This document shows, in pieces, positions 1 to 17,559 of a DNA stretch of 34,415 nucleotides (its first letter is position 1; every line of letters begins with the position of its first letter). Location: NCBI GenBank assembly GCA_949879765.1, contig CATLBQ010000016.1:1-34415 (forward strand). The letters run 5' to 3'. The notes beneath the pieces were generated by a model. It searched no databases. It was given only the letters and a program-made list of their open reading frames with translations, and was not told where the DNA came from. Source of the DNA: an uncultured Bacilli bacterium (GTDB lineage Bacteria > Bacillota_I > Bacilli_A > ML615J-28 > CAG-313). The position numbers and the translations under genes are program-made.

Positions 1-1685
1 TTATCATACTCAAATTTAACAACATCCTAAAACTATGAGCTGGACTGGTTGGTATTCAGAAGAGTTTTATCATACTCAAATTTAACAACATCCTAAAACC
101 CAAGATTACCGCAAATATATGGCATCATTGTTTTATCATACTCAAATTTAACAACATCCTAAAACATGATTGCTTATTTTTCAATGATTAAAATTGGTTT
201 TATCATACTCAAATTTAACAACATCCTAAAACTATTTAAAAGATAGAAACAGCGATATGATGGTTTTATCATACTCAAATTTAACAACATCCTAAAACGT
301 GTTGAACCTGATTCGCCTGTAGCGGATTGTTTTATCATACTCAAATTTAACAACATCCTAAAACTGAAAGATTTCATTCGTTTCTTTCCAAATTGTTTTA
401 TCATACTCAAATTTAACAACATCCTAAAACGTTCCATCAGAACCAATTACTGATTTAAATGTTTTATCATACTCAAATTTAACAACATCCTAAAACATAA
501 AGTAGACGCTTACTTCATAATAATGAGTTTTATCATACTCAAATTTAACAACATCCTAAAACTATGAATTTCAATGAAATAGAAAAAGCTATGTTTTATC
601 ATACTCAAATTTAACAACATCCTAAAACATTTTTTTTCATCGAAAACAAACCCCTCTCGTTTTATCATACTCAAATTTAACAACATCCTAAAACTATTTC
701 TGTCGACAATATTATCGGGGTAATGTTTTATCATACTCAAATTTAACAACATCCTAAAACTGCTTTATTATATCACACTTGTCAATTTTTGTTTTATCAT
801 ACTCAAATTTAACAACATCCTAAAACAGGAACACTATAAGACAATGAGTTTAGACGGTTTTATCATACTCAAATTTAACAACATCCTAAAACGTCAATAA
901 ATTGCTTATTGGCATTATTAACGTTTTATCATACTCAAATTTAACAACATCCTAAAACTGAAGAAGTACTAAGTATTTTGAATGGAAAGTTTTATCATAC
1001 TCAAATTTAACAACATCCTAAAACGCCCTAAAAAGCAAAATAAAAGGTAGCATTGTTTTATCATACTCAAATTTAACAACATCCTAAAACTAAAGAAAGG
1101 GAAAAAAACAAAATATGAAAGTTTTATCATACTCAAATTTAACAACATCCTAAAACGTTGATTACCAGACATTTAAAAAATGTTATGTTTTATCATACTC
1201 AAATTTAACAACATCCTAAAACCAAAAGGGGTCATTGTAATACATTTTTTTGGTTTTATCATACTCAAATTTAACAACATCCTAAAACCATTCACCTTCT
1301 CTTAATTCGTGTTTAAATGTTTTATCATACTCAAATTTAACAACATCCTAAAACGCAATATGTCAATGAATGCAATACGTTCAGGTTTTATCATACTCAA
1401 ATTTAACAACATCCTAAAACTATATTTGGTACGAATTAAATAAATAGCAATGTTTTATCATACTCAAATTTAACAACATCCTAAAACGATTAACATCTTC
1501 TATAGCTTTTTTTCGGCGTTTTATCATACTCAAATTTAACAACATCCTAAAACGTTGATTAATTTTAAAGGAAAAGCATTATGGTTTTATCATACTCAAA
1601 TTTAACAACATCCTAAAACCAAGGTGCTTCAGCAACTAGAGATACAATAGTTTTATCATACTCAAATTTAACAACATCCTAAAAC
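1..1685 (-). CRISPR. CRISPR array 1 (26 repeats, 25 spacers, continues off left edge)
   Basis: A 36 bp direct repeat recurs every 66-67 bp. Read on the minus strand it begins GTTTTAGGATG and ends GAGTATGATAAAAC. Plus-strand copies start at 64, 130, 197, 263, 329 and so on up to 1584 and 1650, and a copy lacking its first 3 bases opens the window at 1-33. I count 26 repeats and 25 unique spacers of 30-31 bp. All copies I read are identical, and no degenerate terminal repeat is seen, because the leader-distal end lies outside the window. The leader is at the high-coordinate end, next to csn2, so the newest spacers are near 1685 and transcription runs right to left. A 19 nt stretch of the repeat is matched perfectly by the tracrRNA anti-repeat at 4005-4023. 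Long open frames across this region are artefacts of the 66 bp period. Confidence 0.99.
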
Positions 1686-1814: not shown

Positions 1815-2687
1815 CGAATTTATAAATTTTATATAAGAATCTGGTATGGAATCTAGTGAAACGATTTCTAAATGACAATTGATTTGAATTTGTAGTGCCT
1901 TTGATATCAGAATATACGCTACATATTTTTGATAATTTTCTGTTGTAATGATTTGATTAGTTATATCTAAAACAAAACTTTGAATATATGTTCTTAATAA
2001 ATTATCACTTATTTCACAGGGCCAGTTGATTCTCAATTGATTAAGTAGTAATTCTTGATTAATGTTGACGATTTTACTACCAATATAAATATTAGGAAAA
2101 GCAGTATCATAAAATTTGAATATAGTTATATTTTCTAAATTGTCTAAACTATTACCAAATATATGACTGTTTACAAAAATTAGAATAGATTTTTTCATAT
2201 TTTTATTTTTTAAATTGGTAATTATTTTTTTTATAATTTTAATATAATTCTCTATGCTTAAATCTATTTTAAATTGTATATAGTTTGTGATTACTTTCAT
2301 AATGTCTATATCAAAATGGATATCATATTCAATAGTTTTATTTTCGATGGTTTTATTTACTAGGTTAAAAAGAATGGCCTCTAATTCTTCTTCTATTCCA
2401 AAATTTTCAACATTCTCGCATATTTCTTCCATTAAATAGTCATATAATAAAGTGCCTTTCTTTAATTGTAATTGATTAGATATACTCTCATAATCTAATA
2501 GATTAATAATATATGATGTTTTATTATCTATTTTACGATTGCCTAAAAATATAGCTGTATCATTTGTAAAAAAGGTATTGAGAAAACTATATAAAGAATA
2601 GTAGTTTGATACTAATATATGATTGATATTTTCTACATATAAGTTATCTATATGTAATTGTTCATCTAATATCCTTAACTCAATCAT
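1809..2687 (-). CDS. csn2: Csn2-like adaptation protein, long form (system 1)
   Basis: 292 aa from ATG at 2687, which has GAGGTGG just upstream and overlaps the cas2 stop by 8 bases; the frame stays open to 2711 but lacks a better start. Csn2 is a ring-forming DNA-end-binding protein needed for spacer acquisition in type II-A. The call rests on position (cas9-cas1-cas2-X-array), acidic and Asn/Ile-rich composition, and a C-terminal half with a beta-strand segment ILIFVNSHIF, resembling the LLIFVNSGAY strand of streptococcal Csn2. It is much longer than short Csn2 (about 220 aa) and closer to the long Csn2 of S. thermophilus CRISPR1-type loci. Sequence similarity to either is not obvious by eye, so the exact Csn2 family is uncertain. 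Confidence 0.72.
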   Translation of the reverse strand: MIELRILDEQLHIDNLYVENINHILVSNYYSLYSFLNTFFTNDTAIFLGNRKIDNKTSYIINLLDYESISNQLQLKKGTLLYDYLMEEICENVENFGIEEELEAILFNLVNKTIENKTIEYDIHFDIDIMKVITNYIQFKIDLSIENYIKIIKKIITNLKNKNMKKSILIFVNSHIFGNSLDNLENITIFKFYDTAFPNIYIGSKIVNINQELLLNQLRINWPCEISDNLLRTYIQSFVLDITNQIITTENYQKYVAYILISKALQIQINCHLEIVSLDSIPDSYIKFINSL

Positions 2688-3033
2688 TATTGCCACCTCT
2701 AAAATAAACAACGTTATTGGAACCTACTATATTATCATATTTATTTTTTTCACCATTTAAATAAATCATATCATTATATTGTTTATCTGTCATTTTCATT
2801 AAGATAATATTTCCTTTATCGGGTATAATCTGTTTTACTTTTTTGATAATTCGCTCATATTCTGATTGATTAATCATTGATTTTACATATACAGAAAATT
2901 GTAACATATAGAAACCTATTTTTTTAATTTTTTTCACAAACTTTTGATTATTAGATATATCATCTTTTTCGATACTTGGTAAATCAAATAATAATATGAT
3001 TCTCATTTTTCTATAATCACTAATTTTCATCAT
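2680..3033 (-). CDS. cas2: Cas2 (system 1)
   Basis: 117 aa from ATG at 3033 (a second ATG at 3030 and one at 3006 are alternatives). Cas2 forms the core of the Cas1-Cas2 integrase that inserts new spacers. The N-terminal strand MRIILLFDLPS carries the conserved Asp of the Cas2 ferredoxin-like fold. It is followed by KKIGFYMLQFSVYVKSM, typical of type II Cas2. There is no separate ribosome-binding site: the start overlaps the end of cas1 by 14 bases and the stop overlaps the start of csn2, which suggests translational coupling. The C-terminus after about residue 95 is a variable tail ending YFRGGNND. Confidence 0.95.
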   Translation of the reverse strand: MMKISDYRKMRIILLFDLPSIEKDDISNNQKFVKKIKKIGFYMLQFSVYVKSMINQSEYERIIKKVKQIIPDKGNIILMKMTDKQYNDMIYLNGEKNKYDNIVGSNNVVYFRGGNND

Positions 3034-3922
3034 CAAAATAGGGGAACGTTATATTTTCTATTGTTGAATTAGTTAAAGCATCCGTAATAGAAATTACATA
3101 CAATCTGATCGATTCGATTATTTTTTGTTTGGATTTACCAAAGTTTATATACTGATACATAATATTTAATAATTTTTCTTTGAACATAGATGTCATAAAT
3201 TCTACCTCCTCTTCTTCTATTAATTGAATTGTATAATAATCGATTATGGGTCTATACACCTCTATGATATCATCAGCTAACCCAAAATAATTATATTCAC
3301 TACAATGAAATATCCCTAGTGACGAAATATATCCATGTGCTACAATTTCTTGTGCAATTTTTGCTCTTGCTATTTGATAAATATAATTTAATGAACTATT
3401 GATGATGTCATCTGCATTTCTTTTTCGGACAAAGTCTAGACCAAACAATTCATGAAAATATACTTTTGCGGCTAGACCTTCTCTATTGGTTATATCCCCT
3501 TTTTCAACTTGGTCGATATATCCTTTTAGGATCTCTATTTTTTCTAGTTTTTTCATCTTATATAAAACAACCATTTGTAACAATATCTTTTGCTTCACAA
3601 TTTTTTGCCATACTACTTGCTTTACTGCTTTATCCCATTCAATTTGATAACGATTGTATTTTGCGGCACGTTGATTATCAGTAATTCCCTGTAATACGCC
3701 AAGTGGCATATGATTTTCACCACATATAACAAGTGATATTCCTTTTTTGGCAATCTCTGATAAAAGTTTAATAGATGTATTACACATTAATGTTTCTATA
3801 ATAATCATATCGATTTCATCTAAACATATCCATACAATCTCATCTTTTTGTAATACGCCTATACTATTTAGTTGATAATTGATTCTCATTGCTTCTTCAA
3901 TACAAACAATTCTCCATCCCAT
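3020..3922 (-). CDS. cas1: Cas1 integrase (system 1)
   Basis: 300 aa. I place the start at ATG 3922 (protein MGWRIVCIEE), because the upstream in-frame sequence belongs to the tracrRNA and its terminator and AAAGGTG sits 6-7 bases before this ATG. Streptococcal II-A Cas1 also begins with a GWR motif. Cas1 is the metal-dependent integrase of spacer acquisition. The family motifs are visible: NREGLAAKVYFHELFG with the first metal-binding Glu, then LGIFHCSEYNYFGLADDIIE with the His and the acidic ligand, then YRPIID. It is closer in arrangement than in sequence to the Cas1 of system 2 in this window. It follows the tracrRNA terminator by about 25 bases, so read-through or an independent start is needed for expression. 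Confidence 0.96.
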   Translation of the reverse strand: MGWRIVCIEEAMRINYQLNSIGVLQKDEIVWICLDEIDMIIIETLMCNTSIKLLSEIAKKGISLVICGENHMPLGVLQGITDNQRAAKYNRYQIEWDKAVKQVVWQKIVKQKILLQMVVLYKMKKLEKIEILKGYIDQVEKGDITNREGLAAKVYFHELFGLDFVRKRNADDIINSSLNYIYQIARAKIAQEIVAHGYISSLGIFHCSEYNYFGLADDIIEVYRPIIDYYTIQLIEEEEVEFMTSMFKEKLLNIMYQYINFGKSKQKIIESIRLYVISITDALTNSTIENITFPYFDDEN

Positions 3923-3945: not shown

Positions 3946-3971
3946 AAAAAAAGAGAGGGATTAACCCTCTC
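3946..3971 (-). terminator. tracrRNA 1 intrinsic terminator
   Basis: On the minus strand, GAGAGGG-TTAAT-CCCTCTC is followed by seven T. It ends 23 bases before the cas1 start codon, so it may also reduce read-through from cas9 into the adaptation genes. Confidence 0.9.
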
Positions 3972-4040
3972 CTGGATTCCACATACGTGTAATAATAGGA
4001 ACCTTTGTTAAATTTGAGTATGAAGCACTACGTCTAGTGC
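3946..4040 (-). ncRNA. tracrRNA of CRISPR system 1
   Basis: Predicted RNA of about 95 nt between cas9 and cas1, read on the minus strand. From the 5' end: a 6 bp hairpin GCACTA-GACG-TAGTGC (4040-4025); an anti-repeat perfectly complementary to 19 nt of the array 1 repeat (4023-4005); a short bulge AGGT opposite UG in the crRNA; a lower stem TCCTA (4000-3996) pairing with UAGGA of the repeat; a small CAC-GTAT-GTG nexus-like hairpin; and a terminator with 7 bp stem and 7 T. It base-pairs with pre-crRNA for RNase III processing and Cas9 loading. Placement between cas9 and cas1 is known from S. thermophilus CRISPR1-type loci. Promoter, anti-repeat and terminator all agree, so the call is strong. 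Confidence 0.93.
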
Positions 4041-4046
4041 CTCTAT

Positions 4047-4075
4047 ATTATACTACAAAATTTTTCTACTGTCAA
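4047..4075 (-). promoter_or_regulatory. Consensus promoter of tracrRNA 1
   Basis: TTGACA (4075-4070), a 17-base spacer and TATAAT (4052-4047) on the minus strand: a perfect vegetative consensus. The -35 box lies in the last codons of cas9 (Leu-Asp-Ser) and the cas9 TAG stop (4055-4053) directly precedes the -10 box. The expected start is G at 4041 or 4040, the first base of the 5' hairpin. Confidence 0.92.
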
Positions 4076-7000
4076 GTCTTACATAACGATTACCCAAAAT
4101 ATCTGTTGTATAAATGATAATGGCTTGATCATTTGCTGTAATACCTGTTTCTGGAACACTCTTTAAACCATTTGTATCTAATATTAATTTATTATTAGCT
4201 TTATTATAAGTACTATATCTTCCCTCTTTATACTCACCATTCTTTTTAATCACACCAATCCATTCTCCACAATAAATAGAGGCAAATTCAATAACTTTTT
4301 TCTTTCCTACTAATCGATTATAAGTTTCAGTATAATAGGAATGATTTGTATTCAATTTACCATTTTGATAGCAAATAGATGGTATTGGTAAGAATATAAA
4401 CTTTTTATCTTCTATTGCGTATAATATTTGTGTAGATTGTTGGCTTAAAGAAGTAAGTCCTATATTGGTTTTCTCCTTCATTGGCATATTGATAAACTCA
4501 CCATATTGATTTTTCTTTTTAGGACCAACTTGTTGCTTTAAATACGGATAATTTACTTTTTGCATATATCTTAATTTTACAACAATTGAACTTTTTTTAT
4601 CATCACTTCTATGAATACCATGAAGTAGATACTCAAACTTTTCTGTCCCTTCTTCTAAACCATTTTTATAGATACATTCTTTTCTAAACGGATTCCCCTC
4701 TTCTGGATAAGAATCATAAATTTGTTTTAACTTGTGATAGAGTGTTTTATCTTTTTCGTAACATAACAATTCAACTGTATGGTCATCTGGATTGAATAAC
4801 CTATCCAAAAGTTTTTTATCCTTTTTTTCATCATAACTATAAATATTATCAATCTGACAAATTTGATAATATGTATCACCACGTTTAATGAACTTCGCAT
4901 AATTGGTATCAGAAAACTGTCTTATAGGGTTCTTTAATACTTCATATGATCTTTTTAGCAATCCTTCTTTGTCATCTAAAGGTTGATTATCACAAGCCTC
5001 ATTAAATGCCTTAATTTGCTTTCCACATAATAGATGTACTCCCGCAATCATTTGATATACACTTTCATAATGTTGTTTATCATTGACACTGAGCCAGTAT
5101 TTACTATCATTTTGCGATTGAATCAGTACTTGTCCTATTGGTGTATCACAAAGTCCTGCTAAAATCATTGCATCTATCGCATGATGATATAAATAATCCC
5201 TATTTTTTATAGATAATTCTAAATTTTTTCTGATTCTACTCGTCAATTGTCCTGGAGCACTAATGACATTGATTTGATAGCCAATCTTTCCTGCTAAATA
5301 CGTATTATATTTTTCAAGTTCTTCAATTAAAGCAACTGTACCATATGCCGTATCTCTTAAATTACGATTGATAAATTTAATCGAGTATTTATCAATACTA
5401 CCTTCAAATAGTAAATTATTCTTTTTTGGCTCAGGCATATTTGTAAACTCTTTTAAAACGCGATCTTTAAATTTTTGATATTTGTTTTGACTCAATAGGT
5501 ATTCATAAGGTGTTCGGTTTGATTTTTCTGTGTTACACTTTGGGCAAGAACAAGTCAAATTATTCGAAGAAGAATCCATTGTTTTTGACTTCGGTAAAAT
5601 ATGTTCAATATCTGTTTGTAATAGCATGGCAAGAGGAATATTTTCTCCACAATATGCACATTTGTGATTGGTTTCTTCCCAAAGAATCACTTTATCTATA
5701 TTCTTACTTTGCACAGGATATCCGTTTTCTATTAAAATCTTTTCCGCTTCTTCATTTAACTTTCTATAAATGGCTTGTTCCTTTTCAATTTTTTGCTTTG
5801 CTTCCTTACCATTCATTTCCTTGGCTGATTCTACGATAATAGTATCTGGATAGTCTTTTTGTTGTTGCATAATTGCATTGATGACTTTAATTGCCTTTCT
5901 CAATGTTTTTTTAACTTGAGGATTGGCAATAATGTCATCTATATACTTCTCTTCCATTAGAAATGGTGCTTTAGCTTTTGTTGAATAATGATTTTGAAAA
6001 TATTCTTTCATTTCTTTTTCATATTCTAAACGCTTCATAATTTGCATAAAGTTAAATTCACAATGATATTTTTTTATGTCATTTAAGGCTTTTTTTAGTA
6101 TAGATTCTGATAAGGCATGATATCTTAATTGATCATTTTTCTTTCTTTTAATTTCTTGCAATATTTCAATTTCTGCTTTTGAAAATGAAATATTGGATAT
6201 TCTATCTATAAGCATATCTTCTATGGCATAAGTAGATGGCGCAACCGTTAATACATATACTACCTTATTATAAGTAATTCTATCCTTTTCTTCTAACCAA
6301 TCAGGATGTAGACCTTTTTTTGTCATTTGTTCTTTTACATATTTATAAAATTCAAATTTAGTAAATTCTGGTTTCCTATTTTTATCTATTCGATATCCTT
6401 GGATATCCTCTTCTTTTAAACCAAGAACCTTTTGTATCATTTTATCAAAATTGACTGTTTTATTGCATAGAATATAGGTTTTAAATTCTTCAATAGTTTC
6501 TTCAGTAAATTTACCATTGTTTGTTTTGACTTTGTCTTGAAATGCCTCATCCATTTTAGATGGCTCTTTTACACTCATATTGATAAAGTCATTGTAAAAA
6601 TTAAATGCTTCGGCAAAATAATTGCACGCTGGTGCAACAGGATTCATATGTCCTGTTTTATCTATGGATAACTCACATTTTCCAATTAATACTTCATATA
6701 AATATTTGTGATATGTTGGATCTTTTGCCAATTCTTCCAAATCTTCTATGGTAGCATACCTACCATATGGAGTTAACTGATTGTCTTTAGATCCCCCTGG
6801 TCCTTCCCAAAATTGCCTTTTTGATTGAACAATATTCATGATGTTTTGAATAACTTCATCATTTATTTTAGAATGGTATTGCTTCTGAGTTTTCAATAAG
6901 GTTTCCAATTCTCTCATATTGTCTTTCATCAATATGAGTTCACATTGACCACGATACTTCTGATATTTTTCGTAGTATGACTGAATATAAAAACAAGGCA

Positions 7001-7397
7001 GTTCACCATCTATGCACTGATGAACTTCACGATCTAGCTTTTCTTCATCAAATGGAATATATCCTCTATGAATAGAAAAATAATATAAAATATTGGTAAT
7101 TTCTTGTTCTGTTAATTCCTCTTTCAAACCTTTTATTCTTTTTTGTAATAAATTAGGTTCATAACTTCTTTGGGTCCAAAAGCCAATTTGATATAAGTAT
7201 TGAGCTAATCGCTCTACACGATGACGTCTTCTTTTTGTAAGTCTTCTACTACCCCGAACTTTTCTTCTATCTTGTGCAGCTGATGCTTTTTCATAGCGAA
7301 CAACACCTTTATCGATAATTTGTTGTTCATCCAAATCATATATTGCCCAACCTACATTATTAATACCTAAGTCAAGACCAATTGAATATTTTCTCAT
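4053..7397 (-). CDS. cas9: Compact Cas9 with zinc-type HNH (system 1)
   Basis: 1114 aa, RNA-guided DNA endonuclease. Visible parts: RuvC-I with D9 (SIGLDLGINNVGWA); Arg-rich bridge helix at about 44-62; RuvC-II with E523 (IIVESAKEMNG); HNH at about 575-635 with H599 (DIEHILPKS) and N612/N613; RuvC-III with HHAIDAM, H738/H739 and D742. All catalytic positions are present, so it should cut both strands. The HNH carries two CxxC pairs (C580/C583 and C618/C621), a likely structural zinc site absent from streptococcal Cas9 and from S. aureus Cas9. The size resembles the S. thermophilus CRISPR1 and S. aureus Cas9 group. Start ATG 7397 has GGAGGG five bases upstream. The stop lies within the tracrRNA promoter. 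It is the first gene of the system 1 operon and lies 66 bp downstream of yabQ. Confidence 0.98.
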   Translation of the reverse strand: MRKYSIGLDLGINNVGWAIYDLDEQQIIDKGVVRYEKASAAQDRRKVRGSRRLTKRRRHRVERLAQYLYQIGFWTQRSYEPNLLQKRIKGLKEELTEQEITNILYYFSIHRGYIPFDEEKLDREVHQCIDGELPCFYIQSYYEKYQKYRGQCELILMKDNMRELETLLKTQKQYHSKINDEVIQNIMNIVQSKRQFWEGPGGSKDNQLTPYGRYATIEDLEELAKDPTYHKYLYEVLIGKCELSIDKTGHMNPVAPACNYFAEAFNFYNDFINMSVKEPSKMDEAFQDKVKTNNGKFTEETIEEFKTYILCNKTVNFDKMIQKVLGLKEEDIQGYRIDKNRKPEFTKFEFYKYVKEQMTKKGLHPDWLEEKDRITYNKVVYVLTVAPSTYAIEDMLIDRISNISFSKAEIEILQEIKRKKNDQLRYHALSESILKKALNDIKKYHCEFNFMQIMKRLEYEKEMKEYFQNHYSTKAKAPFLMEEKYIDDIIANPQVKKTLRKAIKVINAIMQQQKDYPDTIIVESAKEMNGKEAKQKIEKEQAIYRKLNEEAEKILIENGYPVQSKNIDKVILWEETNHKCAYCGENIPLAMLLQTDIEHILPKSKTMDSSSNNLTCSCPKCNTEKSNRTPYEYLLSQNKYQKFKDRVLKEFTNMPEPKKNNLLFEGSIDKYSIKFINRNLRDTAYGTVALIEELEKYNTYLAGKIGYQINVISAPGQLTSRIRKNLELSIKNRDYLYHHAIDAMILAGLCDTPIGQVLIQSQNDSKYWLSVNDKQHYESVYQMIAGVHLLCGKQIKAFNEACDNQPLDDKEGLLKRSYEVLKNPIRQFSDTNYAKFIKRGDTYYQICQIDNIYSYDEKKDKKLLDRLFNPDDHTVELLCYEKDKTLYHKLKQIYDSYPEEGNPFRKECIYKNGLEEGTEKFEYLLHGIHRSDDKKSSIVVKLRYMQKVNYPYLKQQVGPKKKNQYGEFINMPMKEKTNIGLTSLSQQSTQILYAIEDKKFIFLPIPSICYQNGKLNTNHSYYTETYNRLVGKKKVIEFASIYCGEWIGVIKKNGEYKEGRYSTYNKANNKLILDTNGLKSVPETGITANDQAIIIYTTDILGNRYVRLDSRKIL

Positions 7398-9875: not shown

Positions 9876-9888
9876 AATTTTTGCATTA

Positions 9889-9929
9889 AAAAATAGAAGT
9901 AAACTTATCTATAGTTTACTTCTATTTTT
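9889..9929 (+). terminator. lysS terminator
   Basis: A perfect 16 bp inverted repeat (9889-9904 / 9914-9929) has a 9-base loop and a T-rich right arm. Poly-A at the left arm means it may also work for the minus strand. From here to 10183 I see no gene, only AT-rich sequence with stops in every frame. Confidence 0.88.
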
Positions 9930-10182
9930 ATTATACTTACTATTTATAGCCAAATAATGAAATCTATATTCAATGTGCCTATCAATCAATAACATTCTTT
10001 CTCTCCTCTTTTTTATCTTTGTCTAGCATTGATTTTAAAAATATTTAATAATTGATTTTATACGTGTTCACTAAGGAATTAGATTGAATAAAGGACTCTA
10101 TAGTATGTCTATTGTCATTTAGAAAGCACGGATAAGCCAAAAAGGATACCTATTCGAAACAGTTTAATGTCGTGTTTAGGAC

Positions 10183-10214
10183 AAAAAGAAAAGAATGCTT
10201 ATTTTGCGTTCTTT
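10183..10214 (-). terminator. Terminator after the small ORF next to array 2
   Basis: On the minus strand, AAAGAACGC-AAAATAA-GCATTCTTT is a 9 bp stem with one G-U pair, followed by TCTTTTTGT. It overlaps the stop codon of the 83 aa ORF at 10213. Confidence 0.6.
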
Positions 10215-10464
10215 AATCCCATATTTTTGTTGTTGGATATTTTTCCAACACTTCTCTTAATTCTGTTTCGCTTAATTCAAGTTTTTCTAAAGTTATGTTT
10301 TCTTTAATACATTTTTCAAATGCATTAATTTTTTTGTCTAAATTTTTTTCACTTATCAAATCAAAAAAATCGATCAATCCTCCAAAAAAACCATATTTTT
10401 CAGTGTATGAGAGATATAAATTAAATAGTTTTTCAAGTAAATCAGCTAATTTTTCTTCATCCAT
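10213..10464 (-). CDS. Small acidic protein of unknown function (possible immunity protein)
   Basis: 83 aa, starting MDEEKLADLLEKLFNLYLSY and ending YPTTKIWD. It is mostly helical, acidic and Leu-rich, with no family I recognise. Its ATG overlaps the end of the interrupted gene upstream by 8 bases (ATGGATGA), so translation would be coupled to that gene. A small acidic ORF coupled to the C-terminal end of a larger protein is the usual layout of toxin-immunity pairs; that is an inference from layout only. It is closed by its own terminator. With its upstream partner broken, it may no longer be expressed. Confidence 0.55.
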   Translation of the reverse strand: MDEEKLADLLEKLFNLYLSYTEKYGFFGGLIDFFDLISEKNLDKKINAFEKCIKENITLEKLELSETELREVLEKYPTTKIWD

Positions 10465-10756
10465 TTTTTTCTTTTAGCATTTTTAATGCTTCTCCTTTCA
10501 ATCTTTCTAAAGAATCATAAGTGTGTGGAAATGCCTCTTTGAATGCCTGTAACTATTTATCAGCATTCATTAGTTTTAAAGTTAAATAATTTGCAAATAA
10601 TTCTTCTAGAATCATACTAATATTAGAGTAATAATATCCTCCACAATCTACTATTATAATTTTATTACTAAATGCACATTCTCTTGTCATAGAAGCAATT
10701 ATATTGTACAAATTAAATTTATTTTGATCTTCTTGATTATCCATATCTTTAACCAA
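10457..10756 (-). pseudogene. 5'-truncated, stop-interrupted gene remnant abutting array 2
   Basis: Reading from the array boundary (10756), the frame encodes about 67 aa, including IIIVDCGGYYYSNISMILEE and LFANYLTLKLMNADK. It then meets TAG at 10553-10555 and continues in the same frame as LQAFKEAFPHTYDSLERLKG plus a short Lys-rich tail, to TGA at 10459-10457. Joined across the stop it looks like the C-terminal end of a larger protein. The 5' part is missing, because the frame meets a stop inside the last CRISPR repeat. The ILEELFANYLTLK helix resembles the Glu-bearing helix near the C-terminus of some metallopeptidase-like and polymorphic-toxin domains, but I do not recognise the family. 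Confidence 0.6.
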
Positions 10757-11320
10757 GTATAGTAATTATCATATTTAGCATACCTAGCAAACGGTAAATC
10801 TAATCTCCCTTGATTTGTTAAAGTATAGTAATTATCATATTTAGCATACCTAGCAAACTAATTCGTATCCTACAAATTCAGAGTTACCGTATAGTAATTA
10901 TCATATTTAGCATACCTAGCAAACATATGTCTTGTGAGCGCATATTCTGTTGCGGTATAGTAATTATCATATTTAGCATACCTAGCAAACTGGCTCTTCC
11001 ATAATAAGATAACTTTCGTTGTATAGTAATTATCATATTTAGCATACCTAGCAAACTCCATTTTGTTAAAGTAAAATGGTGCAGTCGTATAGTAATTATC
11101 ATATTTAGCATACCTAGCAAACACAGTTGCAGCAAGCATGGTTTACATTCCTGTATAGTAATTATCATATTTAGCATACCTAGCAAACTACATGTTCAAC
11201 CAATCAGGTATTAATCTGTGTATAGTAATTATCATATTTAGCATACCTAGCAAACATGTATCTACTGATTATTTGTTAGGTCTAGTATAGTAATTATCAT
11301 ATTTAGCATACCTAGCAAAC
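10757..11320 (-). CRISPR. CRISPR array 2 (9 repeats, 8 spacers)
   Basis: 36 bp repeats start on the plus strand at 10757, 10823, 10889, 10955, 11021, 11087, 11153, 11220 and 11285. Read on the minus strand the repeat begins GTTTGCTAGGTATGC and ends GATAATTACTATAC. Spacers are 30 bp, with one of 31 and one of 29. All nine repeats read identical, including the leader-distal one at 10757, which is normally the one that decays. The leader is at 11321, next to csn2, so polarity is right to left. The repeat differs from array 1. A 13 nt segment (TATTTAGCATACC on the plus strand) is present in the tracrRNA at 17359-17371. Confidence 0.98.
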
Positions 11321-11366
11321 CTCAAATCCAATATTTGCGGTCTGCTAGTCCTATATGCTATATCAA
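11321..11366 (-). promoter_or_regulatory. Short leader of array 2 with leader-anchoring sequence
   Basis: Only 46 bases separate the csn2 stop from the first repeat. The leader ends on the minus strand with ATTTGAG (11327-11321), the known type II-A leader-anchoring element. No strong promoter is visible in it; a weak TGn-TATAGC could act from the end of csn2. The array may depend partly on read-through from the cas operon. Confidence 0.7.
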
Positions 11367-12014
11367 TCAAAATAAACACCAATCAGAATCTATCATTAAA
11401 TTTGTTCCCTTTTTTTCATTTTCTATACTATTTAATTCTAAGTCAATTATAGTAATTGATAATAATGATAATTCCTTTTTTAAAAGAGCTAATTCCTGAT
11501 TCGATAATATTTTGGTTAATCCATTTGATATTATTATACTATAATCATTAATTTCTAAATTTACTTTAATATATGTTACTAGATTTTCAAGATAATTCTT
11601 ACATTCAGTCTCACAAATTGAAACTCGGAAAATATTCAGTAGATTTATTATGCTAAAGTTGTTTTCATAAGTCATTTTCAATTCACTTTCTAGACAAATA
11701 TCTTCTAAAATATTTAAAATTTCTGATTCAATGAGTGCTATTTTTTGCCTTTGATTTTCATTTAAGGTATTATTAATTTTTTTATATAATAAATTTAATA
11801 CTTTTTTATCATTTAATTCTAAATGGAATGGATTCATAATTTTTAGAATATGTTTATTAAATTCTTTTACATCGTTGTCAATACTATATATTACATATTC
11901 TTCTAATGAAAAAATAAAACTTCTATAAACAATCACATCATCAAATAATAATTGAATGATTGGTTCATTTAATTCTATTAATTTATTTAGTGGTTTTATA
12001 AATATCTTCTTCAT
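11367..12014 (-). CDS. csn2: Csn2, short form (system 2)
   Basis: 215 aa, close to the usual 220 aa of streptococcal Csn2. Csn2 forms a tetrameric ring that binds DNA ends during spacer acquisition. Visible similarity to S. pyogenes Csn2 includes the N-terminal LNEPIIQLLFDDVIVYRSFI, the middle region ESEILNILEDICLESELKMTYE in two parts, and SIIISNGLTKILSNQELALL, which resembles LLIFVNSGAYLTKDEVASL. The start ATG shares a base with the cas2 stop (TAATG), so translation is coupled. It is the last gene before the array. Confidence 0.9.
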   Translation of the reverse strand: MKKIFIKPLNKLIELNEPIIQLLFDDVIVYRSFIFSLEEYVIYSIDNDVKEFNKHILKIMNPFHLELNDKKVLNLLYKKINNTLNENQRQKIALIESEILNILEDICLESELKMTYENNFSIINLLNIFRVSICETECKNYLENLVTYIKVNLEINDYSIIISNGLTKILSNQELALLKKELSLLSITIIDLELNSIENEKKGTNLMIDSDWCLF

Positions 12015-12334
12015 TATAAAACTAATGTCCTTTCATCCGTTGTAACAACATCGGTTTTGGTATCTCCCACTAAAATTTTTAATTGAGAAAATTGTTTTTC
12101 TGTAATATTAAGAACCATAACATTTCCTCTAGAAGGTACTATGCTTTTTAGTTTATTGACTATTGATTCCATCACTTGATAATCTATTGACATTTTAACA
12201 TAAACCGATTCTTGTATCATATAAAATCCCATTTTTTTTATTTCCTTTACAAATTTTCTATAATTTTTTTGGTCAATAGTTGTGATTGTTGGCAAATCAA
12301 AAAATAGTATGGAACGCATAAATCTATAACTCAT
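12014..12334 (-). CDS. cas2: Cas2 (system 2)
   Basis: 106 aa from ATG 12334 (protein MSYRFMRSILFFDLPT); a TTG at 12340 is in frame but less likely. It has the Cas2 ferredoxin-like fold with the conserved Asp in FFDLP, then KKMGFYMIQESVYVKMSID and VPSRGNVMVLNITEKQF, all typical of type II-A Cas2. It pairs with Cas1 to capture and integrate protospacers. It overlaps cas1 by 11 bases and shares one base with csn2, so the adaptation genes are tightly coupled. Confidence 0.96.
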   Translation of the reverse strand: MSYRFMRSILFFDLPTITTIDQKNYRKFVKEIKKMGFYMIQESVYVKMSIDYQVMESIVNKLKSIVPSRGNVMVLNITEKQFSQLKILVGDTKTDVVTTDERTLVL

Positions 12335-13196
12335 ACTCAATAAATTTTAAATCCAATTCATTATGCTCTTTCATATAATTAATTAAATCAATGACATATA
12401 AATGAATTGCATTGTCTAAAAATATTTTTTTTCCATTATATTGTACATAAGATGATAACATTTCTATAAAACGAAATTTGAAATTTTCTTCATTAATATA
12501 TCCTTTAATAATATAACTATCTATCAATGGTCGAATAGGTTCAATCAGATCACATGATAAATTAAACGGATTAGACTCACCTATATGGTGTATCCCTAAT
12601 TCAGTCAAATACCCCAATGCTCTAATTTCTCTATTAATGGCTGATAAAACAATTGAATAACCATAATTTAAATATTTATTAATCAAAATATCTTTATTTC
12701 TACTAAAATCTATCCCAAATAAAGTATTGAAATAAACTTTTGCACTATGTCCTTCTCGGTTTGTTTGATCAGCATCCTTTACTTCACCTTGATATTTTAT
12801 CAATAAATTATATTCTTCTTTATAGTTTTTATAAAGTAAGTTCTTTGCTTGATTTTCTATCTTTTTTTGTACAATTTTTTTCCAAAGATATCCTTTATTT
12901 TCTTGAACAAATCGAATTTGTTCTTTGATTTTTCTATAAGCATAATAGTTATTTTCATATGGCGTTAACTCACATTCTGGATTGTATTGTTCGTTACAAA
13001 AAATAAGCTTAATTTTACTTTGAGATAACATACACACTAGGCTTGTGGTAATAGAGACTTGAGTAGACAAAATAACTATTAGTTTTATTTCATCAAGAAG
13101 AACTCTTTTTTCTTCTGTTCCACGTCTACAAATGAGATAGTTTAATGAGTACTCTAATTTACATCTTTCATTAATTATAATATTTCTAAACCCCAC
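12324..13196 (-). CDS. cas1: Cas1 integrase (system 2)
   Basis: 290 aa with a GTG start at 13196, giving (M)GFRNIIINERCKLEYSLNY. This matches the length (289 aa) and start of S. pyogenes Cas1, and GAGGTG lies four bases upstream inside cas9. The longer in-frame extension to 13250 only reads through cas9 codons. Active-site motifs are DQTNREGHSAKVYFNTLFG with the catalytic Glu, LGIHHIGESNPFNLSCDLIE with the His and acidic residue, and PIRPLID. It overlaps the end of cas9 by 11 bases. It is clearly of the streptococcal II-A kind. Confidence 0.96.
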   Translation of the reverse strand: MGFRNIIINERCKLEYSLNYLICRRGTEEKRVLLDEIKLIVILSTQVSITTSLVCMLSQSKIKLIFCNEQYNPECELTPYENNYYAYRKIKEQIRFVQENKGYLWKKIVQKKIENQAKNLLYKNYKEEYNLLIKYQGEVKDADQTNREGHSAKVYFNTLFGIDFSRNKDILINKYLNYGYSIVLSAINREIRALGYLTELGIHHIGESNPFNLSCDLIEPIRPLIDSYIIKGYINEENFKFRFIEMLSSYVQYNGKKIFLDNAIHLYVIDLINYMKEHNELDLKFIEYEL

Positions 13197-16100
13197 TAGG
13201 CACCTCAAATAAAATTTTGCAATAATACCCAGTAATTGATTCACTAACAAATTTCATACCAGGTTTCAATGTCTTTCCCATAGTCAATAATCCCGTTTTT
13301 TCTTTCATATCAATTATTCTCAAGTCAGCTGTTTCCCTAGTATTCGTTTTCAAAAGTTTTAATAGTTCAGTGATTAGTTGAATATACTCTTTTATAGTTA
13401 ACTTTGTTATACTATTTAATTTATTCACTATTTTCTCAATTATTTTATAGGAGTATATGCTTTTTGAGTATGCTTTTTTTATTTCATCTAAAACATATAT
13501 ACAATCATCTGTTGATATCATTATATCCGCTTTTTTATTACTAGATGTAGAAACAATAATTTTATCTTCCATTTTTTCCATCGGTATTTCCATTTGGACT
13601 TGGTTATTATATTTATCTATATTTTTTATAATCTTTACAAAGCGGTAGGAAAAATTTCTATCCAACATATTTTTTATACCATAAACATTGTTACTTTTTC
13701 CAGTTATACAATATTTCTTTTTTTCATCCATTATAATAGCATTGGTTTTTATACAATTATGAACAATTTTGAATGATATATATTCTTCTGAATTTATAAT
13801 TTGATGAATATATTTTTCAATGGAATTTTCAAAAACTTTAGGAATGGCTTCTAATATATAACTCTTTTTTTGGTTTTTATCTATCAATTCCACAATACAA
13901 TATTTACTATATGCATATGATGTTATTCCACCATATTTTTCTAAATTGCATCGCTTATCCTTAGTTTTAATTGGAACTGTACCATTTTGAATAATTGAAG
14001 TCTTTGCAAACATTTTATTCGAACAATAAGAACGAATTGTTTCATGAATATCAAATCTTTGTTGCAAATTTTTTCTTATTAATTTTAATGTTTCTTCCTT
14101 TTTCCAAATAACTCTATCTTTAACAATGCGATCTTTTGATAGAATAATCTCTGGATTAATACTACAACTATTATTTTTCATTTTTTCTAAATCATATTGA
14201 TTATTAAAATGATATACTTTATAGTACTTATTTAAGGCCATCCCAATTACTGCATTTAAATATGCATCATGTGCATGATGATAATTGTTTACTGTACGAG
14301 ATTTTAGTAAATCATAATTTTGCCTAAAATCTGATATATTTTCTGCTTTTGAATAAATAATATGACTTTCATCAATTTGCTTGTATAACTTTAATGTCTC
14401 TATCAGTCCTTTAACCGCTTGATTAGTTACTACAAGTTGCCGATTTACAAAACCATTTAATTCTTCTGGTTTAATTTCTTTTTGAGTTAATCTTCTAAAT
14501 TTTTCTTTAGTGATTAATTTTAATTCTAATAATTTGGTATAAAATCTATCAGCATTTTTAGGTAAAAAATTAGGAATGTTACAAATGAATTCATCCTTTT
14601 TTATATATTGATTGATGTGCGATTCAACTAAAACTTTATTGCTCAATGAATCGTCTTTAATTAAAGATTGGGGATAAATATGATCTACATCATAAGTTTT
14701 TCCACTTAATTTCTCTAAATCAATATCCTCTAAAGTATATAGACTTTTACCTAATTGGGTAAAATATAGGTATACTTTTTCTTGGCGTAATCTATCTTTA
14801 TATTTTTCTAAAGATACACTTAATTTATTAACATTTATATGAAATTTATTTAAAAGGTCAGCTTGCTTCTGACATTCATTATAAAATTCTTTTAATTGTT
14901 TATATCTAGATGAAGTTGTTTTTTTAATAGCTTTGTTAGTACGTGTACACTCTATACAATAATAATCTATCTTTTGTTTTAAAATTGTTTCAATTTCATC
15001 AATTAATTTGTATGTTTGTATTAAAGGTCGTTTCATAATTGGCGAAACATAAATATGATTATCAATGAATTCACTTATCCCTTCCTCTTCACCCTTCATT
15101 TGATTTTTATTATATTCATCAATAATTTTTATAAAATTGTACTTATCATCAAAAAGAATTTGTTGTAAATTTAAATTGGTATCTCTCATAATTTGAATAA
15201 TAGGACCATAAACTTCTCCTGTACTCTCATTAATAGAGACTAATTCTGCTAATAATTTTTTACTGATGGTTGCATAACCTTTATAATTTAGTTGTTTTAT
15301 TTTTTCAACCTTTTCATTATCTAAATAGTATATCTCTCTTAATCTTTTTTCTAATATTTTTTTATCTTCAAATATAGTGATATCTTTTATTATTTCTTCA
15401 ATTGTATCTTTATTTTGGTAAAACTCATCTCCAAATATTTCCTTAAATTTTATATAAGAAGTCATATCGCATGTAATTTCTTCTATTTTGGAAGTAAAAC
15501 TAGTTGATTCGTAATTATAATTAGCTTTTAAATACTCTTCTATTTTTTTTCGCGTAGGTTTATTATATTTTAAGAAAATATTATTGTACAAATCTTCTTT
15601 TATTTTCTTATCAATCAATTGACCATTTATTCTCAAACGATTCAAGTACTGTAAACAATTATATTCAGAAAATAATAAAGATTTTTTAGGTAAACAATAA
15701 TCATTATCCCCATGTAGATAAGTACATTTGTTTTGCATTTTTTCAATAAACTGTTTTGCGGTAGTATCAAGATCAATAACCCTTTCATAATTCCAAGGAG
15801 TAATTTTTTCATTCGTTCTTTTTACCCAACTATATGGAGATTTATTATTTAATGGCCCCACATAATATGGTAAATGATATTTAAAAATAGAAACTATTCT
15901 TTCAATTCTAGTGTATTCGCCATCTTTAACCAATAAAAATGGATAGTATTTGGCTTGATTATTCAATATTTTTTTTAATTCTATTAAATTCAGTTGCATT
16001 GGAATAACTGTATTATGCCCAGAATTTTGTCTTAATAAATAGGTTCCCTGTTCTATACTTTTTAAAATTTCGTTCTTCAACTCCACTGCTTCTTCTTTAT

Positions 16101-17295
16101 CAACCTTTTTTAACTGTTTTTTTAAATAATCATAAAATTCGTCTCTTGCACAATGAGAAAATCTGACTAATTGTTTTTTAGTAGAATTCATACCAATATA
16201 ATGTGGATAATTATATAATTTTTTATCATACTTTCTAAAGCATTCATTATAAGATTGTGGTAGATAATTTTTAAAAAAGAATTTCAATTTTTTTAAATCT
16301 TCTTGATGTTTATCGTACTGCTTTACCATAGCCTCACTAAGATAGTTACTTTCACCAATAAGTTCTAATAAATAATATGTATCCCTAATTTCTTTTAAAA
16401 GTAATGCAGCATCTAGTAATTGTGCTAAATCTACTACCAATTTTTTTGAAGTTTCTATTTTTTCTAATAATTCTTCATTTTCTAAATCAATTTCACACTT
16501 TTCATAATGTTGTTCTTGTAAAAGCGTCAACTTACTTATATTTACAGAACTTCCCACTAACAGTTGTATTACAAATTCATTAACAAATGTCTTTTTTTCG
16601 ACTCCAAATAATTGCTTGAGTTTTAACTTTTGATCATTTTTAGTAGAGACTTTTAAAAATATATTTTCTAATTCATTTAAAAAATTATTATCCATTTGAA
16701 TTTCTTCAAAGTAATCCTCATTATCCTCAAATTTTACTCTTGCCTCTGCTAATAGTTCATTAATTGTATTAAAATTATTTTCTATTTGAAAATGATTTCC
16801 CTTATCATAATCTGTACCCTCATTTAGAAAATGCCCTCGATATTTAACAATATGATGTGCTGCAAGATATAACATCCTAAGATCAATTGGCTCATCAACT
16901 ATCAATAAATGCTTTCGCAAATGATAAATCGTCGGAAACGTATTAAAATACTCCTTATCTGTCAATACGTCATCAAAAAATGTATACTTATTATTATTCT
17001 GCTTATCTTCTATTTTATAGAATGAATCATTTAACCTTTGAAAAAATAATGGATCTATTCTTTGAATCTCATCAAAAAATTCATCTTGTAGCCATTTTAT
17101 TCTTTGCCCCCTTTTTGTTCCTCTTCTTCTAGAACATCTATGTTCACGACGATCTTTTGCATCCTCTGCTTCATCCATCATTCTTACTCCCCAAAGAGCA
17201 AAACCATTTTTCTTAACAATTTCATTGTTCTCATCTATTACTGCCCACCCAATAGAATTGGTACCAACATCTAATCCTAATGTATATTTTTTCAT
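13186..17295 (-). CDS. cas9: Large type II-A Cas9 (system 2)
   Basis: 1369 aa, about the length of S. pyogenes Cas9 (1368 aa). Catalytic residues are intact: RuvC-I D9 (GLDVGTNSIGWAV), RuvC-II E782 (YYCIECTRTNKA), HNH H872 (YDVDHIYPQS) and N886 (SNKVL), and RuvC-III H1007 and D1010 (NNYHHAHDAYLNAV). The Arg-rich bridge helix is at about 48-66 and the HNH has no zinc-binding cysteine pairs. The C-terminal end aligns by eye with the streptococcal PAM-interacting domain through ESITGYYCKILFEV. Counting back from that anchor, Gly and Leu replace the two arginines that read NGG in S. pyogenes. Start ATG 17295 has GGGGAGG upstream. A divergent tracrRNA lies immediately upstream, and cas1 overlaps the 3' end. 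Confidence 0.98.
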   Translation of the reverse strand: MKKYTLGLDVGTNSIGWAVIDENNEIVKKNGFALWGVRMMDEAEDAKDRREHRCSRRRGTKRGQRIKWLQDEFFDEIQRIDPLFFQRLNDSFYKIEDKQNNNKYTFFDDVLTDKEYFNTFPTIYHLRKHLLIVDEPIDLRMLYLAAHHIVKYRGHFLNEGTDYDKGNHFQIENNFNTINELLAEARVKFEDNEDYFEEIQMDNNFLNELENIFLKVSTKNDQKLKLKQLFGVEKKTFVNEFVIQLLVGSSVNISKLTLLQEQHYEKCEIDLENEELLEKIETSKKLVVDLAQLLDAALLLKEIRDTYYLLELIGESNYLSEAMVKQYDKHQEDLKKLKFFFKNYLPQSYNECFRKYDKKLYNYPHYIGMNSTKKQLVRFSHCARDEFYDYLKKQLKKVDKEEAVELKNEILKSIEQGTYLLRQNSGHNTVIPMQLNLIELKKILNNQAKYYPFLLVKDGEYTRIERIVSIFKYHLPYYVGPLNNKSPYSWVKRTNEKITPWNYERVIDLDTTAKQFIEKMQNKCTYLHGDNDYCLPKKSLLFSEYNCLQYLNRLRINGQLIDKKIKEDLYNNIFLKYNKPTRKKIEEYLKANYNYESTSFTSKIEEITCDMTSYIKFKEIFGDEFYQNKDTIEEIIKDITIFEDKKILEKRLREIYYLDNEKVEKIKQLNYKGYATISKKLLAELVSINESTGEVYGPIIQIMRDTNLNLQQILFDDKYNFIKIIDEYNKNQMKGEEEGISEFIDNHIYVSPIMKRPLIQTYKLIDEIETILKQKIDYYCIECTRTNKAIKKTTSSRYKQLKEFYNECQKQADLLNKFHINVNKLSVSLEKYKDRLRQEKVYLYFTQLGKSLYTLEDIDLEKLSGKTYDVDHIYPQSLIKDDSLSNKVLVESHINQYIKKDEFICNIPNFLPKNADRFYTKLLELKLITKEKFRRLTQKEIKPEELNGFVNRQLVVTNQAVKGLIETLKLYKQIDESHIIYSKAENISDFRQNYDLLKSRTVNNYHHAHDAYLNAVIGMALNKYYKVYHFNNQYDLEKMKNNSCSINPEIILSKDRIVKDRVIWKKEETLKLIRKNLQQRFDIHETIRSYCSNKMFAKTSIIQNGTVPIKTKDKRCNLEKYGGITSYAYSKYCIVELIDKNQKKSYILEAIPKVFENSIEKYIHQIINSEEYISFKIVHNCIKTNAIIMDEKKKYCITGKSNNVYGIKNMLDRNFSYRFVKIIKNIDKYNNQVQMEIPMEKMEDKIIVSTSSNKKADIMISTDDCIYVLDEIKKAYSKSIYSYKIIEKIVNKLNSITKLTIKEYIQLITELLKLLKTNTRETADLRIIDMKEKTGLLTMGKTLKPGMKFVSESITGYYCKILFEVPSGV

Positions 17296-17322
17296 ATATT
17301 TTCCTCCCCATATTTATTTTTC

Positions 17323-17351
17323 TTGACATTTTTTATTGATTTTGATATACT
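17323..17351 (+). promoter_or_regulatory. Promoter of tracrRNA 2
   Basis: TTGACA (17323-17328), a 17-base spacer and TATACT (17346-17351). The -35 box is only 28 bases from the divergent cas9 start codon, so RNA polymerase bound here would sit beside or over the cas9 leader. The expected start is near 17358. Confidence 0.88.
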
Positions 17352-17357
17352 ATTATT

Positions 17358-17429
17358 GTATTTAGCATACCGAGTGCAAATAAGCATTTATGCGAAATCT
17401 TTGAGCCCCATTGTGAGGGGCCATTTTTT
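17358..17429 (+). ncRNA. tracrRNA of CRISPR system 2
   Basis: A predicted RNA of about 72 nt, divergent from cas9. The 5' end is the anti-repeat: TATTTAGCATACC (17359-17371) is perfectly complementary to the array 2 crRNA repeat. Then come a bulge and a lower stem GCAAAT (17376-17381) that pairs with GUUUGC at the 5' end of the repeat. A small nexus hairpin GCAT-TT-ATGC (17384-17393) follows, then the terminator hairpin. This order (upper stem, bulge, lower stem, nexus, terminator) is that of streptococcal tracrRNA. It has one promoter close to the anti-repeat; I see no upstream promoter for a long form. Confidence 0.92.
17405..17429 (+). terminator. tracrRNA 2 intrinsic terminator
   Basis: GCCCC-ATTGTGA-GGGGC is followed by CATTTTTT. 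It is a GC-rich stem in an AT-rich background and closes the tracrRNA. Confidence 0.9.
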
Positions 17430-17495
17430 ATTTCTAAATATATATACTAAAAGATAATCCATTATTCTTTATACAATAGTTTTATTTTACTATAT

Positions 17496-17525
17496 ATGAC
17501 AATTTTTTTCAAGGAATTATATAAT
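17496..17525 (+). promoter_or_regulatory. Predicted promoter of the metallo-hydrolase gene
   Basis: ATGACA (17496-17501), an 18-base spacer and TATAAT (17520-17525). The start codon follows 35 bases later with AGAGGTG as the ribosome-binding site. Confidence 0.55.
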
Positions 17526-17559
17526 AATAAATAATGATATCGAGATAAGAGGTGACTTT

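What the first reader, a model, noticed from the sequence alone, without database searches (positions are those of the whole stretch)
4053..7397. Compact Cas9 with a Cys4 zinc-type HNH in a csn2-bearing operon
The HNH contains CAYCG and CPKC pairs around DIEHILPKS, a likely zinc ribbon. This is known from IscB-like and some actinobacterial II-C Cas9 proteins, but not from the streptococcal or staphylococcal II-A enzymes I can recall. Here it occurs with an adaptation module that has a long csn2-like gene and a cas9-cas1 tracrRNA. The combination suggests a little-studied branch of type II systems, and the 1114 aa size makes it a compact nuclease.
Basis: partly seen in the sequence, partly recalled or inferred. 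Interest (0 to 1): 0.62.

Follow-up and report, generated by a model that had tools for sequence, protein, structure and literature searches.

The report
Zinc-HNH Cas9 in type II-A CRISPR
This is a complete type II-A CRISPR-Cas9 immune system from an uncultured bacterium whose Cas9 carries four invariant cysteines, a probable zinc clip in one of its two DNA-cutting domains, and which belongs to a small, deep branch found here in nine genomes; the rest of its design is ordinary for its group.

Summary
Cas9 at 4053-7397(-) is 1114 aa, with C580/C583/C618/C621 around the HNH motif. The operon cas9-tracrRNA-cas1-cas2-X-array is intact except that the contig end cuts the array.

Remote comparison shows a very divergent long Csn2: the top eight Foldseek hits in the PDB are all Csn2; hhalign against recognised long Csn2s gives P=4.5e-7 (score 56; at most 21 in 100 shuffles); one homologue hits a PADLOC Csn2 profile.

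Nine genomes in two orders carry this Cas9 (down to 37% identity). All keep all four cysteines. None of 40 other Cas9s aligned has the full set.

In trees made without the HNH columns the clade is a 100%-supported long branch beside the SaCas9/St1Cas9-type (long-Csn2) II-A group. The exact attachment is unsettled (II-C not excluded, p=0.06), but Cas1, Csn2, leader and architecture say II-A.

Size, long csn2 and cas9-cas1 tracrRNA are standard for that group. Unusual are the zinc-type HNH and the divergent Csn2. New variant of a known kind; zinc binding is inferred, not shown.

The parts
1..1685 (-). CRISPR array A: 26 repeats of 36 nt (GTTTTAGGATGTTGTTAAATTTGAGTATGATAAAAC), 30-31 nt spacers; the copy at the window start is cut by the contig end
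   Evidence: window = whole contig C16
1686..1808 (-). Leader; 3' end ...CATTTTGAG|GTTTT, close to the ATTTGAG motif of group-1 II-A leaders
   Evidence: motif from PMC5382924
1809..2711 (-). Divergent long Csn2 (ORF 300 aa; exact start uncertain)
   Evidence: no profile hit; Foldseek top 8 all Csn2; hhalign vs long Csn2 P=2e-5 and 4.5e-7 with shuffle controls; homologues in 5 relatives, after cas2
2680..3036 (-). cas2
   Evidence: Pfam CRISPR_Cas2 5e-15, PADLOC Cas2_II 1e-32
3020..3922 (-). cas1 (ORF runs to 3982; ATG at 3922 more likely because the tracrRNA terminator lies upstream of it)
   Evidence: TIGR03639 type II Cas1 6e-78; tree
3946..4040 (-). tracrRNA: anti-repeat ~4000-4024, hairpin, terminator stem 3953-3971 and T-run 3946-3952; -10-like TATAAT at 4047-4052 (5' end inferred)
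   Evidence: best duplex in 18 kb, -30.2 kcal/mol; conserved in relatives with matching repeats
4053..7397 (-). cas9, 1114 aa, RuvC (D9, E523, H739/D742) and HNH (H599, N622) residues present
   Evidence: fold like SaCas9/St1Cas9
5502..5684 (-). HNH core (residues 572-632) with Cys pairs C580/C583 and C618/C621
   Evidence: pLDDT about 85-92 there except 68 at residues 601-610

Best explanation
A type II-A CRISPR-Cas system of the long-Csn2 (SaCas9/St1Cas9-like) kind. Cas1-Cas2, aided by a divergent Csn2 and Cas9, add spacers at the leader end. The pre-crRNA pairs with a tracrRNA encoded between cas9 and cas1, and the dual RNA guides Cas9 to cut invading DNA with RuvC and HNH. What differs is that the HNH carries a C-x2-C ... 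C-x2-C site that most likely binds one structural zinc and pins the beta-beta-alpha catalytic core, as in IscB and type II-D Cas9. Shown: genes, RNA pairing, conserved residues, Csn2 homology, clade. Inferred: expression, activity, zinc binding and its role.
For: Cas9/Cas1/Cas2 families. The tracrRNA pairs best with its own repeat, and anti-repeats change together with repeats across relatives: matched pairs -29 to -45 kcal/mol, pairs from different genera -13 to -25. Spacers differ completely between the window and its sister genome (Cas9 87% identical) while leader, repeat and genes are conserved, so acquisition is or was active. X is a Csn2 relative. Cys4 kept in 9/9. Predicted Cas9 fold best matches SaCas9 and St1Cas9, TM 0.63-0.70 for the best entries. 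Cas1 groups with csn2-bearing systems, 100/98. C4 HNH in IscB and Zn-finger HNH in Cas9d are documented (PMC13180657, PMC9755519); zinc bound by two C-x2-C pairs in a phage HNH (PMC5304195).
Against: No structure shows zinc here, and coordinates of the model could not be inspected. The X model is low-confidence (pLDDT 56). Cas9 trunk placement is not decisive: grouping with csn2-less (II-C-like) Cas9s is not rejected (p-AU 0.060). No protospacers or PAM found. No expression data.
Confidence: 0.82

Rival explanations
1. The HNH was captured from an IscB-like or free-standing HNH endonuclease by recombination into an ordinary II-A Cas9, instead of being retained from the ancestor.
For: The Cys-flanking stretches are strikingly IscB-like (NLT.SC.KCN; 48% identity over about 60 aa to Trichormus IscB), and the other long-Csn2 Cas9s lack the site.
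Against: The HNH best matches Cas9 HNH domains (58 bits to ThermoCas9 against 35 bits for the best IscB-like chain), keeps Cas9-type spacing (34 residues between the pairs) and the Cas9-like continuation RTPYEYL. The first cysteine survives in 23/40 other Cas9s, as expected of a decayed ancestral site.
Confidence: 0.15
2. The four cysteines are conserved for a reason other than zinc (disulphides, redox switch, another metal).
For: No metal evidence in hand.
Against: Two C-x2-C pairs in the position used for zinc in HNH nucleases (PMC5304195) and IscB (PMC13180657); cytoplasmic enzyme.
Confidence: 0.06
3. It is a II-C-like Cas9 that picked up a II-A adaptation module.
For: AU test does not reject the Cys4 clade together with csn2-less Cas9s (p=0.060).
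Against: Free trees put it with long-Csn2 Cas9s (91/87 to 97/92); whole-length fold nearest SaCas9/St1Cas9; tracrRNA position and array orientation as in II-A.
Confidence: 0.1

Closest known systems
Type II-A, long-Csn2 group (S. thermophilus CRISPR1 / S. aureus Cas9)
   Same: Gene order, Cas9 size and overall fold, tracrRNA between cas9 and cas1, 36-nt repeats and 30-nt spacers, leader end near ATTTGAG, ~300-aa Csn2
   Different: Cas9 only 25-28% identical to sampled members; HNH has Cys4, those have CxYS/T and no second pair; Csn2 not recognised by profiles
Type II-D Cas9 (Cas9d) and IscB
   Same: C-x2-C ... C-x2-C zinc finger inside the HNH (PMC9755519, PMC13180657)
   Different: Those are shorter and differ in REC and adaptation module; Cas9d profile only 117 bits, far under its cut-off of 375
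Actinobacterial II-C Cas9 (AnaCas9)
   Same: Zn-finger-type HNH; mentioned in that context in PMC5304195, cysteine details from my own knowledge
   Different: II-C, no csn2; not sampled here

Membership tests
Type II-A CRISPR-Cas | Cas9 with RuvC and HNH | tested here: met
Type II-A CRISPR-Cas | csn2 in the operon | tested here: met
   Not by profile for the window protein but by fold search and profile-profile comparison with controls
Type II-A CRISPR-Cas | Cas1 grouping with other csn2-bearing systems | tested here: met
   100/98 split from csn2-less systems
Type II-A CRISPR-Cas | Array transcribed in the direction of the cas operon, leader after csn2 | tested here: met
   (orientation from leader and anti-repeat, not from RNA data)
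Type II-A CRISPR-Cas | Cas9 tree position within II-A | tested here: inconclusive
   91/87 to 97/92 with the long-Csn2 group; II-C-like not rejected, p-AU 0.060
Described St1/Sa II-A clade | Nested inside that clade | tested here: inconclusive
   Outside in the widest free tree (93/92); join with Sa rejected p=0.022, join with St1 not, p=0.12
Type II-D (Cas9d) | NCBIfam Cas9d score over cut-off | tested here: not met
   117.5 bits against 375
Zinc-finger HNH | C-x2-C / C-x2-C pairs around the HNH motif | tested here: met
   9/9 relatives
Zinc-finger HNH | Bound zinc | not testable with these tools
   needs metal analysis or a structure

The most novel reading that the evidence does not exclude
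The clade is the surviving sister branch of all SaCas9/St1Cas9-type II-A systems. It has kept the ancestral IscB/II-D zinc HNH and an early form of long Csn2, so II-A arose while the HNH still had its zinc, and the site was lost later and more than once.
Probability: 0.4. Interest if true: 0.6.

Novelty: new variant of a known kind. Interest (0 to 1): 0.5.

Why it matters
Recent papers describe an HNH C4 zinc finger as a feature of IscB 'not observed in Cas9' (PMC13180657) or of Cas9d and absent from known Cas9s (PMC9755519). A csn2-bearing, full-size Cas9 clade with it narrows when the zinc site was lost and gives a natural series (IscB, II-D, this clade, SaCas9) for testing what the zinc does for HNH folding and docking. 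It also adds a Csn2 family that current profile libraries miss, so such loci may be mistyped as II-C. At 1114 aa the nuclease is about the size of SaCas9 and St1Cas9, not exceptionally small.

Tried and rejected
Csn2 by Pfam, NCBIfam, PADLOC, PHROGs and PDB sequence search: nothing for the window protein. Viral contigs, plasmids and phages hold no close relative. Spacer searches for a PAM: all 24 full spacers against phage records and three against viral contigs, none found. Rfam and tRNA scans: nothing. 'Compact' and 'cas9-cas1 tracrRNA' as signs of novelty: rejected, common in the group. Cas9d membership: rejected.

Full report
WHAT IS THERE. The window is a whole 34,415-base contig of a 1.48-Mb draft genome. 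On the minus strand, reading from 7397 down, lie cas9 (1114 aa), a tracrRNA, cas1, cas2, a 300-aa gene X, a leader and a 36/30-nt CRISPR array cut by the contig end. Cas9, Cas1 and Cas2 are recognised by Pfam, NCBIfam and PADLOC. Catalytic residues of RuvC (D9, E523, H739, D742) and HNH (H599, N622) are present; the acidic residue before the HNH histidine is Glu where most Cas9s have Asp.

THE CYSTEINES. Same-family relatives G001 (87%), G009 (50%) and G005 (46%) all keep them. Other Cas9s of the same class, about 25-30% identical over the whole length, do not. A search of a neighbouring order found five more members (about 37-40% identical; G854, G810, G966, G834 and a frameshifted G917), all with all four. 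Across the eight intact clade members C580/C583/C618/C621 are 8/8; across 40 other Cas9s they are 23, 1, 0 and 2. Two IscBs sampled from plasmids have CCCC in the same columns. The commonest state in other Cas9s is C-x-Y-S/T with no second pair, which looks like a decayed zinc site (inference). The literature reports a C4 or Zn-finger HNH in IscB and Cas9d and its absence in other Cas9s (PMC13180657; PMC9755519), and zinc bound by such pairs in a phage HNH nuclease (PMC5304195).

X IS A DIVERGENT LONG CSN2. No profile library sees it. Where its homologues were found they lie after cas2 in the operon of this Cas9 clade or at a contig end with the expected array (G001), and no others turned up in 395 genomes of the class. 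An AlphaFold model (pLDDT only 56) searched against 350,542 PDB chains returns Csn2 structures as its first eight hits (best E=2.3e-3). Profile-profile comparison with 17 long Csn2s from related loci, those tested being recognised by PADLOC, gives P=2e-5 with three X sequences and P=4.5e-7 with six, collinear over 195 and 253 columns; 100 column shuffles score at most 22 against 43 and 56, and a Cas1 family scores 20. One homologue (G854) hits a Csn2 profile directly, E=1.4e-4. I take X as Csn2 with about 95% confidence.

PLACE IN TYPE II. With HNH columns left out, the Cas9 clade has 100/100 support and a long stem. It sits beside the long-Csn2 II-A group that holds SaCas9 and St1Cas9; in the widest tree it is outside that group (93/92). 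The SaCas9 and St1Cas9 rows are the stretches printed. AU tests temper this: joining the clade to csn2-less, II-C-like Cas9s gives p=0.060, to St1 0.12, to Sa 0.022. Cas1 separates csn2-bearing from csn2-less systems at 100/98 and puts Cas1-A among the former. The whole-length model (mean pLDDT 76) is closest to SaCas9 and St1Cas9 (best TM 0.63-0.70). Size, ~300-aa Csn2 and tracrRNA in the cas9-cas1 gap are shared by most sampled long-Csn2 loci, so these traits are ordinary.

FUNCTION. The anti-repeat at about 4000-4024(-) is the best partner of repeat A in 18 kb (-30.2 kcal/mol); relatives with different repeats have correspondingly different anti-repeats in the same gap. The second system's repeat does not pair well with it (-10.5). 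The sister genome G001 has a nearly identical leader and a one-base-different repeat but no shared spacer, which indicates acquisition since divergence. The leader end CATTTTGAG|GTTT resembles the ATTTGAG motif of group-1 II-A leaders (PMC5382924). No protospacer was found, so the PAM is unknown.

VERDICT. A real, conserved and so far little-noticed trait in a small II-A branch, with an additional Csn2 family missed by profile libraries. New variant of a known kind. The search reached one bacterial class in depth plus plasmids and phages; other phyla could hold more members, and I cannot exclude that such Cas9s sit unremarked in published catalogues.

Noticed in passing
10739-17410: A second complete type II-A system: 9-repeat array, Csn2 of 215 aa, cas2, cas1, cas9 of 1369 aa, and a tracrRNA-like anti-repeat divergently placed upstream of cas9 (17326-17410, +). 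Its Cas9 groups with short-Csn2 II-A systems.
   Followed up: partly
9876-17559: In sister genome G001 (L065) lysS and the following MBL-fold gene lie about 85 nt apart, so the second CRISPR system was gained or lost as a block of about 7.6 kb.
   Followed up: partly
L099:1538-5665: A 1376-aa csn2-less Cas9 has C, C, H, C in the four HNH columns: a possible variant zinc site in another Cas9 branch.
   Followed up: no
L124:3701-6915: Cas9 of genome G917 is split into two frames inside the HNH between the two Cys pairs; decay or assembly error.
   Followed up: no
L125:2481-9295: A long-Csn2 II-A locus with two arrays of the same repeat flanking the cas operon.
   Followed up: no
L120:95-6474: The array of genome G854 contains several degenerate repeats, and its locus is flanked by an 89%-identical 79-nt direct repeat (95-173 and 6396-6474), perhaps a sign of block movement.
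   Followed up: no
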